This document shows, in pieces, positions 6,844 through 10,861 of a DNA stretch of 23,443 bases. Source of the stretch: Deltaproteobacteria bacterium (GTDB lineage: Bacteria; Desulfobacterota_B; Binatia; UBA9968); NCBI GenBank assembly GCA_016193385.1, contig JACPSF010000481.1, positions 1-23,443 on the forward strand, read 5' to 3'. The notes under the pieces are model-generated. The model was not told the DNA's origin, ran no database searches, and saw only the letters and a list, made by a program, of their open reading frames with translations. How positions within the stretch are numbered: the first letter of the stretch is position 1; the number at the start of each line of letters is the position of its first letter. Position numbers and translations under genes: made by a program.

Positions 6844-6851
6844 ATTTTTCC
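6844..6851. repeat. Target-site duplication, left copy (ATTTTTCC)
   Basis: These 8 bp directly abut the left terminal inverted repeat and are repeated exactly at 9415-9422, directly abutting the right one. An 8-bp duplication fits DDE transposition by IS1/IS1595-type enzymes. Confidence 0.9.
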
Positions 6852-6868
6852 GGCGGTGTCCTAATTTG
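6852..6868 (+). repeat. Left terminal inverted repeat of the element
   Basis: GGCGGTGTCCTAATTTG is the exact reverse complement of 9398-9414. The TAG stop codon of the minus-strand gene ending at 6861 lies within it. Just inside, an 11-of-12-bp dyad (ATTTGGAATAAG with CTTGTTCCAAAT) spans about 6864-6898. Confidence 0.92.
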
Positions 6869-7124
6869 GAATAAGTTTTATGCGTTCCTTGTTCCAAATC
6901 TGCTCGCATCTTTCGTGGAACGAAATCTTCTCACGTGAAGGTCTTGTATATGTGTGATGAGGATTGGCGCCATCACAAGCAGAACATTGGTTACCGCCCA
7001 TGCTAATCGAGCCCAAGTCACCAAGTTGACCTGATTCACGCGGAAGTCGAGTAGGTAAATGTCTAGGCAACTTACCATCTTTCAATCGCTCAATAATTTT
7101 AGACCTAATTTCCGCATCGGTCAT
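6861..7124 (-). CDS. Small CxxC/HxxC putative zinc-binding protein, transposon cargo
   Basis: The 87-residue product has a helical N-terminus (MTDAEIRSKIIERLKDGKLP). A putative metal site follows: C47-x2-C50, then H70-x2-C73 in FHERCEQIWNKER. This layout resembles widespread small uncharacterised bacterial proteins with a Cys4/Cys3His finger, but I do not know a function. The start has a clear AAAGGAGA ribosome site. It follows the 100-residue gene by 12 nt, so it belongs to the transposase transcript. Its stop codon, TAG, lies inside the terminal inverted repeat. Confidence 0.65.
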   Translation of the reverse strand: MTDAEIRSKIIERLKDGKLPRHLPTRLPRESGQLGDLGSISMGGNQCSACDGANPHHTYTRPSREKISFHERCEQIWNKERIKLIPN

Positions 7125-7136
7125 AAGTATCTCCTT

Positions 7137-7439
7137 TCATGACGGCCTAAACTGCTTTCGAGACTCCGAAACAACATATGACCGCACAGCATCCTCCGCC
7201 GAATTAACCGGCGGCACACCTAACACGGCAACATAGTGCGTCTTGGCATCGTCGCCCTTATAGCTCCATGCGTAGGCAATCTTAGCTTGCGGATGATTTT
7301 CTAAGTTAAATACTTCAACCACGCCCTGCCAGACGGTTTGGCCCTCGAAGGTTTCATGGATAGGCACAGAGCGAGCGTGTTTGCCCTTGCAGCCGTGCAA
7401 ATCCAAAATGGCCTTTTCTAACCGCTCGATCTCAGTCAT
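7137..7439 (-). CDS. Hypothetical protein translationally coupled to the transposase
   Basis: The 100-residue product starts MTEIERLEKAILDLHGCKGKHARSV at an ATG that overlaps the transposase stop (ATGA). The body has strand-like segments (TVWQGVVEVFNLE, KIAYAWSYKG, HYVAVLGVPPV) followed by a charged helix. I recognise no family. Coupling to the transposase suggests either an accessory transposition factor or a passenger gene expressed only with it. The frame is open upstream inside the transposase gene, but that extension is only the shadow of the transposase 3' end. Confidence 0.65.
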   Translation of the reverse strand: MTEIERLEKAILDLHGCKGKHARSVPIHETFEGQTVWQGVVEVFNLENHPQAKIAYAWSYKGDDAKTHYVAVLGVPPVNSAEDAVRSYVVSESRKQFRPS

Positions 7440-8260
7440 TGCGCCATTTCCACTAGATCCTTGACCGTCATTGGGCTTTTCGTAACTCCGGCTTCCATTG
7501 CCGGTGTCATTCGGATTGTACGATGGAAGCGCACGAAATTGTAATAGCAAAAGTATAAATCCATTGCCCGCTTAAAATTTTCTAACTTCTTGCTGAATGC
7601 ATTGGTGAGTCGGGTGAGGCGGCGGCAATGCATTCTGATGGTCAAATTCGAGCACTCAACGTAGGACGTGGACACAAGATCCATATTAGGAAAGCCGATC
7701 ACATCATTTTTTTCGACGCTGGATACTCTAGGCGGACTATAACGGCCACGGTCCGCCGGATCTTGTCTATACTCCTTTACGATAGTCGCATAATCGACCT
7801 GATGACCAAACTTCCGTTCAATGGCGTTAACGTATGGGGCAAAAGCATCACTCGAAAGCTGAATGCGGTTATGGAGGCGAGAGGCTAAATCGTCTACAAA
7901 TTCCTGCGTAGTTTCTGCTGTGCGCTTGCCGACTAGATATGAGGGAATCAATTTCGATTCAGCATCAAGGGCAACGAAAGTGTATTGATCGCCAACCTCT
8001 GACGGATTATCCTCATCGGTAACGTTCTTATTTTTCTTTCCGACGAATCCCCAAATCTCGTCAACCTCGATTCTCTTGCAGTTTAGATCACGGAGAGTCT
8101 TGTCACTGAAAGCCGCGCAGGATTCACCGACGCGCTGCATTAGACGAATGATTGTATCTCGATGAATGCCGGTAATTCTCTCTGTGCTTCTCACGCTAGA
8201 GCCTTCCGCCAACATCGCGATTGCGGCCACCTGTTTTCCCAGCTTAAGTATGTTTGCCAT
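7436..8260 (-). CDS. IS1-like DDE transposase
   Basis: The 274-residue protein has an N-terminal helix-turn-helix region (about 8-45, EGSSVRSTERITGIHRDTI). An RNase H-like catalytic core follows, with acidic residues at D67 (EVDEIW), D138 (LSSDAFAPY) and E202 (STSYVE), then NLTIRMHCRRLTRLTNAFSKK and a C-terminal YYNFVRFHRTIRMTPAMEAG. This block order is that of the IS1-family-annotated transposases common in environmental genomes. The gene is full length without frameshift. AAGGGAGAG precedes the ATG. Immediately upstream lies the divergent ribbon-helix-helix gene and a large operator-like palindrome, so the repressor probably controls transposase expression. Confidence 0.88.
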   Translation of the reverse strand: MANILKLGKQVAAIAMLAEGSSVRSTERITGIHRDTIIRLMQRVGESCAAFSDKTLRDLNCKRIEVDEIWGFVGKKNKNVTDEDNPSEVGDQYTFVALDAESKLIPSYLVGKRTAETTQEFVDDLASRLHNRIQLSSDAFAPYVNAIERKFGHQVDYATIVKEYRQDPADRGRYSPPRVSSVEKNDVIGFPNMDLVSTSYVECSNLTIRMHCRRLTRLTNAFSKKLENFKRAMDLYFCYYNFVRFHRTIRMTPAMEAGVTKSPMTVKDLVEMAQ

Positions 8261-8288
8261 TAGACTCTCCCTTGTATTTGATCTGAAA

Positions 8289-8339
8289 TTAATGTATCAC
8301 AACAACTGTAAGTTGTCAAGCATTATTGTGATACATTAA
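8289..8339. promoter_or_regulatory. Operator-like nested inverted repeats between transposase and RHH genes
   Basis: Perfect 14-bp arms TTAATGTATCACAA (8289-8302) and TTGTGATACATTAA (8326-8339) enclose a smaller dyad ACAACT-GTA-AGTTGT (8302-8316). The right arm ends 5 nt before the RHH start codon, leaving no room for a normal ribosome site. A related half-site (GTAACACAACAAC, 8539-8551; 12 of 13 identical to 8294-8306) lies just after the RHH gene. RHH proteins bind such repeated short sites, so autoregulation and transposase repression are likely. Confidence 0.7.
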
Positions 8340-8344
8340 GTCAC

Positions 8345-8542
8345 ATGGCCGAAAAGAAGAAAAAACCTGGCAGGCCCTTTTTGCCGAAAGATCAAGCCAA
8401 GAAGCAAGTCGTTCACGTACGACTACAGCCCGACGAAAGAGCACTTTTCGAACAAGCGGCCCAAAAAGCTGGGTTAAGATTATCTGAATGGATTAGACGG
8501 GCCTTGAAATCAGCACTTGACAAAGGTATAGTATTATTGTAA
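8345..8542 (+). CDS. Ribbon-helix-helix DNA-binding protein, putative element regulator
   Basis: The 65-residue protein has a basic N-terminal arm with an AT-hook-like KPGRP (7-11). A beta strand (QVVHVRLQ, 21-28) and two helices (PDERALFEQAAQKAG and LSEWIRRALKSALDKG) give the MetJ/Arc ribbon-helix-helix pattern. It is transcribed divergently from the transposase. The start lacks a Shine-Dalgarno and sits directly after the operator palindrome, so the message may be leaderless. Its stop is TAA, the codon that the element's own tRNA-like RNA would read; read-through would add 16 residues to a TGA at 8591-8593. Confidence 0.75.
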   Translation: MAEKKKKPGRPFLPKDQAKKQVVHVRLQPDERALFEQAAQKAGLRLSEWIRRALKSALDKGIVLL

Positions 8543-8555
8543 CACAACAACACAG

Positions 8556-8652
8556 TGGCGGAGGGTGTGGGAGTCAAACCCCATCGCTGCTGACACAGCG
8601 CGCCCTTGGGGTGTAAAGCCCCTTTATCGGCTCGGCCTACGGGACACCCTCC
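8556..8652 (-). tRNA. Unusual 9/3-type tRNA-like gene, anticodon UUA (reads UAA), class II
   Basis: Read on the minus strand from 8652, a 9-bp acceptor stem GGAGGGTGT/ACACCCTCC (8652-8644 with 8568-8560) is followed at the 3' end by G73 and an encoded CCA (8558-8556). The T-arm is a 3-bp GGG/CCC stem around TTTGACT (8581-8569). A 4-bp GGGG/CCCC anticodon stem (8622-8619 with 8611-8608) holds the 7-nt loop CTTTACA with U33 and anticodon TTA (8616-8614). A long variable region (8607-8582) can form GCTG-TGT-CAGC. The 9+3 acceptor branch totals 12 bp, as in the non-canonical 9/3 tRNAs described in bacteria. G73 plus a long variable arm suggests serine identity. Oddities are C37, U56 instead of C56, and a D-arm (8643-8623) without an obvious standard stem. 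Confidence 0.72.
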
Positions 8653-8676
8653 GTCTTTTCACACAAGCGCATAAGG

Positions 8677-8759
8677 TGCTTGCCACGACCCACTCTTGGT
8701 TCCCCGCTAAGGTCCCTAGAGTGGGTCTTCTGGTTTTAGGCCCCCTACATCGGCAAGCA
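8677..8759 (-). ncRNA. Structured hairpin RNA candidate next to the tRNA-like gene
   Basis: Nested perfect inverted repeats TGCTTGCC/GGCAAGCA (8677-8684 with 8752-8759) and GACCCACTCT/AGAGTGGGTC (8687-8696 with 8718-8727) form a long interrupted stem-loop. No coding sequence is convincing here. It lies 24 bp upstream of the tRNA-like gene on that gene's strand, so it may be the 5' part of the same primary transcript or a separate small RNA. The strand assignment rests on that proximity only. No known RNA family is recognised. Confidence 0.5.
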
Positions 8760-8835
8760 TGGACGCAAGAGGCGATACCCTCCTCATAACATCACCCCCG
8801 ATCACATTATCATACGTAGACTTAGGCTATTTTTT

Positions 8836-9261
8836 TCATAATAGAGACGATTCCGTCTTTCTAGGCCTACCAGGTTTCCGTAGCTGCGGTTGTTTACTTT
8901 CTAGCCCGTCCGATGTTATCTCGATTTCTAGCATTTTCTCTTTCGGATTCCATTCCGCAGCAAAAGATCGAGTTTTGGAAAAATCGTAATTAATATGCAC
9001 AAAGAATGTTTTCGCAGAAAAACTCGCGCCGCTGCCTTTTTTACTAAAAGCAAGACGATAGGCTCTCGTATCGGTCTTTGGTCCTTGCTGAATACCTATT
9101 TTGAGTTCATCCTTGTCCCAAAGTAATAGCACGTACTCGACCCCATTTTTTCGTAGAATCGCAGTCGCTGATTGATTAATCCCTACTCTACCGAACGAAT
9201 TTATACTTATTGCAGGGGTTCCCGTACGAACTACTTTTCGGGCAAACACTTCATATCCCAT
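8836..9261 (-). CDS. Hypothetical protein with C-terminal AT-hook, transposon cargo
   Basis: The 141-residue product is unrecognised. It has alternating strand-like segments (ATAILRKNGVEYVLLLWDKDELKIGI broken by turns, AYRLAFSK, KTFFVHINYD, MLEIEITSDG). It ends with a basic AT-hook-like tail, KPGRPRK at 129-135. The same KPGRP element occurs at the N-terminus of the ribbon-helix-helix protein in this element. A good GGGAGGT ribosome site supports the ATG. It may bind AT-rich DNA as an accessory of transposition or regulation; this is inferred from the tail only. Confidence 0.65.
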   Translation of the reverse strand: MGYEVFARKVVRTGTPAISINSFGRVGINQSATAILRKNGVEYVLLLWDKDELKIGIQQGPKTDTRAYRLAFSKKGSGASFSAKTFFVHINYDFSKTRSFAAEWNPKEKMLEIEITSDGLESKQPQLRKPGRPRKTESSLL

Positions 9262-9397
9262 ATAGATCTACCTCCCTGTCAATGCCATACTAGCATACTG
9301 AGCCGCCGTGTCAAGTCCCCTCGCTGTTCCAGAGCCAGCGTCACTTGTCACACTTGTATCGTGTTTTAAAAGAAAGGTCAAATGGGTAAGAGTTAGG

Positions 9398-9414
9398 CAA
9401 ATTAGGACACCGCC
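9398..9414 (-). repeat. Right terminal inverted repeat of the element
   Basis: CAAATTAGGACACCGCC is the exact reverse complement of 6852-6868. About 136 bp between the neighbouring gene start (9261) and this repeat hold no gene that I can support. Confidence 0.92.
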
Positions 9415-9422
9415 ATTTTTCC
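9415..9422. repeat. Target-site duplication, right copy (ATTTTTCC)
   Basis: It is identical to 6844-6851 and directly abuts the right terminal repeat. Removing the element plus one copy restores a continuous spacer between the MBL-fold gene and dksA. Confidence 0.9.
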
Positions 9423-10785: not shown

Positions 10786-10861
10786 GGGGCCGTAGCTCAG
10801 CTGGGAGAGCGTCGCGTTCGCAACGCGAAGGTCGGGGGTTCGACTCCCCTCGGCTCCACCA
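10786..10861 (+). tRNA. tRNA-Ala (CGC)
   Basis: This is a canonical 76-nt cloverleaf with encoded CCA. The acceptor GGGGCCG pairs with CGGCTCC and has the alanine identity wobble G3-U70. The D-arm is GCTCAGCTGGGAGAGC, the anticodon stem TCGCG/CGCGA with loop TTCGCAA gives anticodon CGC, and the T-loop is TTCGACT. A small GCGGCG-CTT-CGCCGC hairpin follows at 10870-10884. Confidence 0.97.

What the first reader, a model, noticed from the sequence alone, without database searches (positions are those of the whole stretch)
8556..8652. Transposon-borne 9/3 tRNA with a UUA (stop-reading) anticodon
Seen: on the minus strand, a 9-bp acceptor stem plus a 3-bp T-stem (12 bp in all), G73, encoded CCA, long variable region, 4-bp GC anticodon stem and loop CTTTACA with U33 and anticodon UUA, which pairs with the stop codon UAA. 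Known: bacterial tRNAs with 8/4 or 9/3 acceptor branches have been reported and some are thought to act as missense or nonsense suppressors. Inference: this is such a tRNA, probably charged with serine (long variable arm, G73), carried as cargo inside a transposable element. C37, U56 and an atypical D-arm could mean either an exotic tRNA or a tRNA mimic used in regulation.
Basis: partly seen in the sequence, partly recalled or inferred. Interest (0 to 1): 0.95.

Follow-up and report, generated by a model that had tools for sequence, protein, structure and literature searches.

The report
Jumping gene carrying stop-reading tRNA
A bacterial jumping gene carries a tRNA gene of unusual shape whose anticodon matches the stop signal UAA, and a number of its relatives carry other tRNA genes with stop-matching anticodons at the same place, so these elements likely spread tRNAs that would make ribosomes read through stop signals.

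Summary
In detail: minus strand 8652-8556 is a 9/3, long-variable-arm tRNA gene with G73, CCA and a UUA (ochre) anticodon. It lies inside a complete IS1-family element, 6852-9414, with perfect 17-bp terminal repeats and an 8-bp target duplication. It is not alone. In 37 of 155 distinct related transposase loci I count 40 tRNA genes just upstream of the transposase (strict finder, ARAGORN and eye combined): 27 have a stop anticodon (22 UUA, 4 CUA, 1 UCA), 4 are UUA or UAC depending on register, 9 read sense codons that by my judgement do not fit the tRNA body. Bodies differ (Ala-, Leu-, Ser-, Gln-, Arg-like). In the transposase tree the window falls among elements with Ala-type tRNAs, yet has a Ser-type 9/3 body with the same anticodon, which points to selection for stop reading. 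Charging, readthrough and the benefit are untested; recoding of the element's own transposase was tested and not supported; a crude test for host dependence was inconclusive. The 9/3 shape and ochre anticodon are known from allo-tRNAs; a transposon family built around miscoding tRNAs I did not find in eight open-licence paper searches.

The parts
6852..9414 (.). complete IS1-family element, 2563 bp
   Evidence: 17-bp perfect terminal inverted repeats, 8-bp target duplication 6844-6851 / 9415-9422
6852..6868 (.). terminal inverted repeat, transposase-end side
9398..9414 (.). terminal inverted repeat, other side
8556..8652 (-). 9/3 tRNA gene with long variable arm, G73, CCA, anticodon UUA at 8616-8614
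   Evidence: relative L032 84% identical
8345..8542 (+). ribbon-helix-helix (NikA-like) protein gene, convergent with the tRNA
   Evidence: Pfam PF21983 34.1 bits, cut-off 27
8288..8339 (.). inverted operator-like pair around the transposase promoter (8289-8305, 8323-8339; promoter-like site 8319-8291 on minus)
8533..8551 (.). further operator-like copy, 4 nt behind the tRNA's CCA
   Evidence: 89% to 8288-8306; the same layout in 11 of 18 elements tested
7436..8260 (-). IS1-type transposase, 274 aa
   Evidence: Pfam DDE_Tnp_IS1 33.9 bits, cut-off 24.1; NCBIfam IS1 model 67.1 bits, below its cut-off 100
7137..7439 (-). 100-aa accessory ORF from the ATG at 7439 that overlaps the transposase stop; relatives beside related transposases
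   Evidence: found in 32 of 55 loci listed, window included; no Pfam or NCBIfam family
8836..9261 (-). 141-aa ORF upstream of the tRNA, no known family
6861..7124 (-). 87-aa ORF ending in the terminal repeat, no known family

Best explanation
This is a nonsense-suppressor tRNA gene built into an IS1-family transposon: its transcript is predicted to be charged with serine and would insert it at UAA stop codons, so that the element likely brings weak stop-codon readthrough into each host. Shown: the 9/3 tRNA architecture, the UUA anticodon, the intact element around it, and the recurrence of tRNA genes of different bodies with stop anticodons at the same slot in related elements. Inferred: expression, charging by SerRS, decoding of UAA (perhaps UAG by wobble), control of the region by the ribbon-helix-helix protein. 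Inferred with less certainty: the element gains because hosts that live with a suppressor come to hold suppressed nonsense mutations and can no longer lose it (addiction by suppression).
For: Stop bias: 27 of 40 tRNA genes in 37 of 155 loci have a stop anticodon, 4 more may (assignments by eye); ARAGORN alone: 13 of 24 calls within 600 nt upstream are Stop(tta), all 24 on the transposase strand, against 1 of 18 elsewhere, Fisher p 0.001. All three stop codons are matched (UUA, CUA, UCA). The bodies are those of charged tRNAs: 24 of the 29 genes with a short variable region have G3:U70, the alanine determinant (20 of 20 scored, 4 more read), a feature the finder did not ask for; the long-variable-arm ones have Leu- or Ser-type ends. 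Same slot, other body: the window and L055 (Ser-type 9/3) fall among Ala-type elements in the transposase tree. In L034 and L062 tandem Leu(UUA) and Ser(UUA) tRNAs keep identical anticodon arms while D-, T- and V-stems differ mostly by paired changes, and the tRNAs persist in L062 though its transposase has lost its 3' end. The tRNA is inside terminal repeats with a target duplication in 11 of 29 loci examined. Known 9/3 allo-tRNAs insert serine in E. coli (PMC7609411, PMC7590224, passages). Precedent for dependence: a chromosomal amber suppressor in Aeromonas salmonicida, with 21 genes that appear to use it (PMC2556355, passages).
Against: No expression, charging or readthrough data. The window's tRNA has C37, U56 and an odd D-arm; Ala-type relatives often have mismatched anticodon stems or C33, and some lack a normal D-arm and match Rfam's tmRNA model weakly (L005 29.4 bits, L003 18.7 bits, cut-off 47), all of which may weaken decoding. 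The only close relative, L032, has no CCA and a weaker T-stem. Nine of 40 read sense codons, and the review reports that UAU allo-tRNAs of this general kind did not work in E. coli translation. Of 155 loci, 118 show no tRNA by these methods. No gene of the element that needs suppression was found. Host dependence: 320 kb of one carrier genome gave coding-like single-stop joins TAA 12, TAG 9, TGA 12 of 33, against 204, 194 and 403 ends of long open stretches; no clear excess.
Confidence: 0.6

Rival explanations
1. The RNA is a tRNA mimic used in regulation: it folds, is processed and perhaps charged, but serves with the ribbon-helix-helix protein to control the transposase rather than to decode.
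For: Operator-like site right behind the tRNA in 11 of 18 elements tested, 0.77 expected from shuffles; tRNA on the transposase strand in 38 of 40; weak anticodon stems in Ala-type members; weak tmRNA-model matches.
Against: Does not explain why bodies of different identity share stop anticodons, including all three stops, nor why most short ones keep G3:U70; tRNAs remain where the transposase is broken (L062).
Confidence: 0.22
2. The tRNA lets the element translate its own genes, which carry the matching codon.
For: It would explain linkage and the anticodon bias; L037's transposase has one in-frame TAG.
Against: Stops in and around transposase, RHH gene and 100-aa ORF show no relation to the anticodon. 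In nine transposases of sense-reading members plus L037, only 1 of 57 cognate codons lies in a column whose commonest residue is the tRNA's presumed amino acid; the L037 TAG is at an invariant lysine. No TAA-interrupted cargo in the window.
Confidence: 0.06
3. Neutral passenger: host tRNA genes captured by chance and drifting.
For: Present in only 37 of 155 loci; several bodies; some copies degenerate (L032).
Against: Constant slot and strand, stop bias, about 16-fold higher tRNA density near the transposase (24 in 91 kb, 18 in 1.1 Mb), and by my reading no member with the anticodon that belongs to its body, which captured host tRNAs would have.
Confidence: 0.06

Closest known systems
allo-tRNAs with 9/3 or 8/4 acceptor branches (Mukai et al. 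2017, NAR, doi 10.1093/nar/gkw898; paper not held, seen through passages of PMC7609411 and PMC7590224)
   Same: 12-bp branch as 9/3, long variable arm, serine-type features, ochre anticodon reported among 9/3 species; a transposon-overlapping allo-tRNA pseudogene and a guess at transposable elements were reported
   Different: here the gene is inside a delimited IS1-family element, in a slot that related elements fill with tRNAs of other shape (mostly 7/5) and mostly stop anticodons
chromosomal amber suppressor tRNA-Trp of Aeromonas salmonicida A449 (PMC2556355, passages)
   Same: natural nonsense suppressor; [quoted passage not shown]
   Different: reads UAG, ordinary body, not reported as part of an insertion sequence in the passages seen
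suppressor tRNAs of phages that reassign a stop codon (for example PMC10607447, search listing only)
   Same: mobile-element suppressor tRNAs
   Different: there the phage's own genes use the codon; here no element gene was found to need it
IS1 family insertion sequences
   Same: DDE_Tnp_IS1 transposase, terminal inverted repeats, 8-bp duplication
   Different: single-frame transposase with accessory RHH gene, 100-aa ORF and tRNA; classical IS1 features are recalled, not fetched

Membership tests
9/3 allo-tRNA | 9-bp acceptor stem and 3-bp T-stem | tested here: met
9/3 allo-tRNA | long variable arm and serine-type identity (G73) | tested here: met
   sequence; V-arm stem with one paired change in L032 (by eye)
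9/3 allo-tRNA | sequence relationship to the published allo-tRNA set | not tested
   the 2017 paper is not held
9/3 allo-tRNA | charging by SerRS | not testable with these tools
   needs an aminoacylation assay
nonsense-suppressor tRNA | anticodon complementary to a stop codon in a 7-nt loop with U33 | tested here: met
   CTTTACA closed by four G-C pairs
nonsense-suppressor tRNA | causes readthrough in cells | not testable with these tools
   needs a reporter assay
tRNA-Sec | Rfam tRNA-Sec cut-off | tested here: not met
   26.2 bits against 47
tRNA-Sec | UCA anticodon | tested here: not met
   anticodon is UUA; sense anticodons are known in some tRNA-Sec
IS1 family element | IS1-type DDE transposase | tested here: met
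   Pfam PF03400 above cut-off; NCBIfam IS1 equivalog below its cut-off, so a divergent member
IS1 family element | terminal inverted repeats and 8- to 9-bp target duplication (sizes recalled) | tested here: met
toxin-antitoxin or regulatory tRNA mimic | regulator binding next to the RNA gene | tested here: inconclusive
   operator-like repeats only

The most novel reading that the evidence does not exclude
IS1-family elements have evolved a class of mobile mistranslation genes: by repeatedly taking up tRNAs of different identity and turning their anticodons to stop (sometimes other sense) codons they install low-level suppression in their hosts, and hosts become addicted because their own nonsense mutations are then masked.
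Probability: 0.3. Interest if true: 0.95.

Novelty: new variant of a known kind. Interest (0 to 1): 0.86.

Why it matters
It gives the puzzling allo-tRNAs a genomic home and a testable reason to exist, and ties scattered odd tRNAs into one pattern: a transposon family whose accessory gene is a miscoding tRNA. If confirmed, transposons can carry changes of decoding between genomes, a possible first step towards stop-codon reassignment, and the set is a natural collection of suppressor tRNAs on several scaffolds for genetic-code work.

Tried and rejected
Readthrough of the RHH stop: it is TAA, TGA or TAG without relation to the anticodon. Readthrough before or after the transposase: no relation. 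Hidden TAA-interrupted cargo in the window: none seen. Transposase recoding by sense-reading members: not supported. In-frame stops in a carrier genome: crude and inconclusive; my notebook entry gives TAG 8 and TGA 13, a recount of the printed rows gives 9 and 12. L062's in-frame stops lie in foreign sequence after a 3' truncation, not in the transposase. Exact-pattern searches for more 9/3 relatives of the window: none in genome contigs or viral contigs. A DNA search of 395 genomes gave matches in 32; one is a true relative (G022, the genome of L032), the others are pieces of 19-32 bases judged from the table only.

Rows dropped: of 33 loci with strict-finder hits, six were set aside by eye as chance (L083, L084, L058, L095, L151, L031). 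L083 does hold an Ala-type Stop(tta) tRNA, but 2.5 kb upstream on the other strand, so it is not in the 40. Four Ala-type genes (L165, L169, L040, L175) missed the scoring script. Limits: the strict finder demands a nearly paired 12-bp branch, and the scoring script demands at least 6 of 7 acceptor pairs and A73, so the 80 of 80 paired cells are in part built in; what was not demanded is G3:U70, the slot, the strand and the anticodon. But the label 'Ala-type' was itself given for G3:U70, hence the count 24 of 29 short-variable-region genes. Anticodons and body types were assigned by eye from stems and recalled identity elements; ARAGORN agrees on 13 Stop(tta) but calls L001 tac, L019 and L186 ttac and L096 ta. 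Some carriers are close relatives (L186/L059, L164/L175, L041/L185, L046/L029), so the p-value is a guide only. MAFFT misplaces 5' strands in A3 and V-arms in A2; neither was used for counts. One fold (L068) used wrong limits and is ignored.

Full report
Observation. On the minus strand, 8652-8556 reads as a 97-nt gene with a 9-bp acceptor stem, a 3-bp T-stem, G73 and CCA, a 5-bp variable-arm stem, and four G-C pairs closing CTTTACA, anticodon UUA. It is the only perfect 9/3 or 8/4 branch in the window and the first 33 related loci. ARAGORN and Rfam at default cut-offs miss it. ARAGORN at a lowered threshold returns exactly these limits as tRNA-Stop(tta), with chance calls beside it. The best Rfam model is tRNA-Sec at 26.2 bits, below its cut-off. 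Allo-tRNAs were themselves found in a search for tRNA-Sec (PMC7609411, passages).

Element. The gene lies within 6852-9414, which has perfect 17-bp inverted repeats and an 8-bp duplication ATTTTTCC. Along the minus strand follow a 141-aa ORF, the tRNA, a convergent ribbon-helix-helix gene (NikA-like), the IS1-type transposase, a 100-aa ORF and an 87-aa ORF; the three ORFs match no Pfam or NCBIfam family. The transposase promoter region holds an inverted operator-like pair, and a further copy lies 4 nt behind the tRNA's CCA.

Relatives. A scan of genome contigs with the transposase gave 33 loci, 23 of them titled as Verrucomicrobia and allied groups. Handle, phylum, class and family searches (matches in 22 of 22, 4 of 387, 7 of 148, 16 of 286 and 11 of 200 genomes), viral contigs (79 loci kept of 203 relatives) and plasmids (4 records) brought this to 155 distinct transposase loci, window included. 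A strict 12-bp-branch finder on up to 900 nt upstream found candidates in 33 of 155 loci, and in 1 of 155 after shuffling; I accept 27 of the 33. ARAGORN at default settings adds nine loci, and L032 (L055) was seen by eye: 37 of 155 loci and 40 tRNA genes, 38 of 40 on the transposase strand. Anticodons: UUA 22, CUA 4, UCA 1; four are UUA with C33, or UAC in the other register (L171, L082, L128, L040); nine are UAU 2, GCU 2, UUC, AUA, UCC, UGC and CGU. By recalled identity elements none of the 40 seems to carry the anticodon that belongs to its body: Leu-like bodies with UUA or UCC, Arg-like with GCU or CGU, Glu-like with UGC. With ARAGORN alone, 13 of 24 tRNAs within 600 nt upstream are Stop, 1 of 18 elsewhere (Fisher p 0.001), and the tRNA density is about 16 times higher there (24 in 91 kb, 18 in 1.1 Mb). 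Loci share ancestry, so the p-value is a guide. In a check of 20 loci, 11 element tRNAs pass Rfam's tRNA cut-off; in nine of the 20 no element tRNA does, and a twelfth hit (L096 3255-3326) is a different tRNA outside that element.

Selection. Of the 29 genes with a short variable region, 24 have G3:U70, the alanine determinant (rule recalled; named also in PMC7609411): 20 of 20 scored and four read. In the 20 scored genes pairs 1-3 never vary while pairs 4-7 change type and pair in 80 of 80 cells, against a mean of 42.8 and a maximum of 58 when 3' halves are dealt out anew. The finder asks for pairing, so the 80 of 80 is partly built in; G3:U70 is not. L034 and L062, two elements of one genome, carry tandem Leu- and Ser-type UUA tRNAs with identical anticodon arms; by eye the D-stem and T-stem of the Leu type and the V-arm of the Ser type differ by paired changes, with one V-arm mismatch. 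The L062 transposase has lost its 3' part, the tRNAs have not. L032, the only close relative of the window's tRNA (84%), keeps UUA, changes the closing anticodon-stem pair from G-C to U-G and one V-arm pair from C-G to G-C, but has no CCA and a weaker T-stem. Of 29 loci examined for ends, 11 show terminal repeats with a target duplication around the tRNA (window, L005, L013, L014, L021, L096, L125, L127, L001, L070, L167); several others were fetched too short to hold both ends. The smallest, L127, is 1,323 bp: a tRNA-Leu(UUA) and the transposase, no RHH gene and no 100-aa ORF.

Same slot, other body. In the transposase tree (149 sequences, midpoint root, supports not examined) carriers are scattered among elements without a tRNA, and the window with L055 falls among Ala-type elements. 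A Ser-type 9/3 tRNA with the same anticodon thus stands where neighbours have an Ala-type one. In 11 of 18 elements given to the test, the 40 nt behind the tRNA share an 11-mer (at least 10 of 11) with the 90 nt before the transposase, 0.77 expected. The letters differ between elements, as a co-evolving repressor site would. So the tRNA looks like part of the element's architecture.

Function. The anatomy argues for a miscoding tRNA: charged by its body, decoding by an altered anticodon. For the window this means serine at UAA; an 8/4 and a 9/3 allo-tRNA from Silvibacterium inserted serine in E. coli (PMC7609411, passages), and amber variants of 9/3 allo-tRNAs did so at TAG (PMC7590224, passages). 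Against this, UAU allo-tRNAs of Edaphobacter type did not work in E. coli. None of this is measured here. Why an element should carry it is open. Own-gene recoding is not supported. I favour addiction by suppression, after the A. salmonicida amber suppressor with 21 genes that appear to use it (PMC2556355, passages); a crude look at 320 kb of one carrier genome showed no clear excess of TAA-broken genes. The chief rival is a regulatory tRNA mimic: weak anticodon stems, weak tmRNA-model matches and the operator-like site speak for it, the stop anticodons on several bodies against it.

Known or new. Eight paper searches (open-licence PMC only, listings capped) showed no report of insertion sequences carrying suppressor tRNAs; Mukai et al. 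2017 itself was not held. [quoted passage not shown] New here, to my knowledge, are the delimited IS1-family element, the pattern of stop anticodons on several bodies, and the recurrent slot.

Noticed in passing
window 8687-8727: A 13-bp inverted repeat (92% complementary, 15-nt spacer) just upstream of the tRNA on its own strand; part of a longer leader or a second structured RNA?
   Followed up: no
element ends, e.g. L005 1440-1458; window 6852-6868: The common terminal repeat GGTAGTGTCCTAATTTGA holds TAG, TAA and TGA, one in each frame; the window's variant keeps TAA only. Whether suppression of end-borne stops matters to genes with an insertion was not tested.
   Followed up: no
L070 1277-1350, L104 4801-4873, L116, L195: Elements whose tRNA reads a sense codon that does not seem to fit its body (Arg-like with GCU or CGU, Glu-like with UGC; bodies judged by eye): possible missense suppressors.
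   Followed up: partly
L034 2595-2773, L062 1056-1234: Two elements of one genome with tandem Leu-type and Ser-type tRNAs, both UUA.
   Followed up: partly
L083, about 2.5 kb upstream of the transposase, opposite strand: A further Ala-type Stop(tta) tRNA outside the usual slot, not in the count of 40.
   Followed up: no
L005 3251-3321, L003 4675-4747: Element tRNAs with reduced D-arms match Rfam's tmRNA model weakly (29.4 and 18.7 bits, cut-off 47).
   Followed up: no
window 7137-7439: A 100-aa protein without known family whose relatives lie beside many related transposases (32 of 55 loci).
   Followed up: partly
window 10786-10861: An ordinary tRNA-Ala(CGC) about 1.4 kb outside the element.
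   Followed up: no
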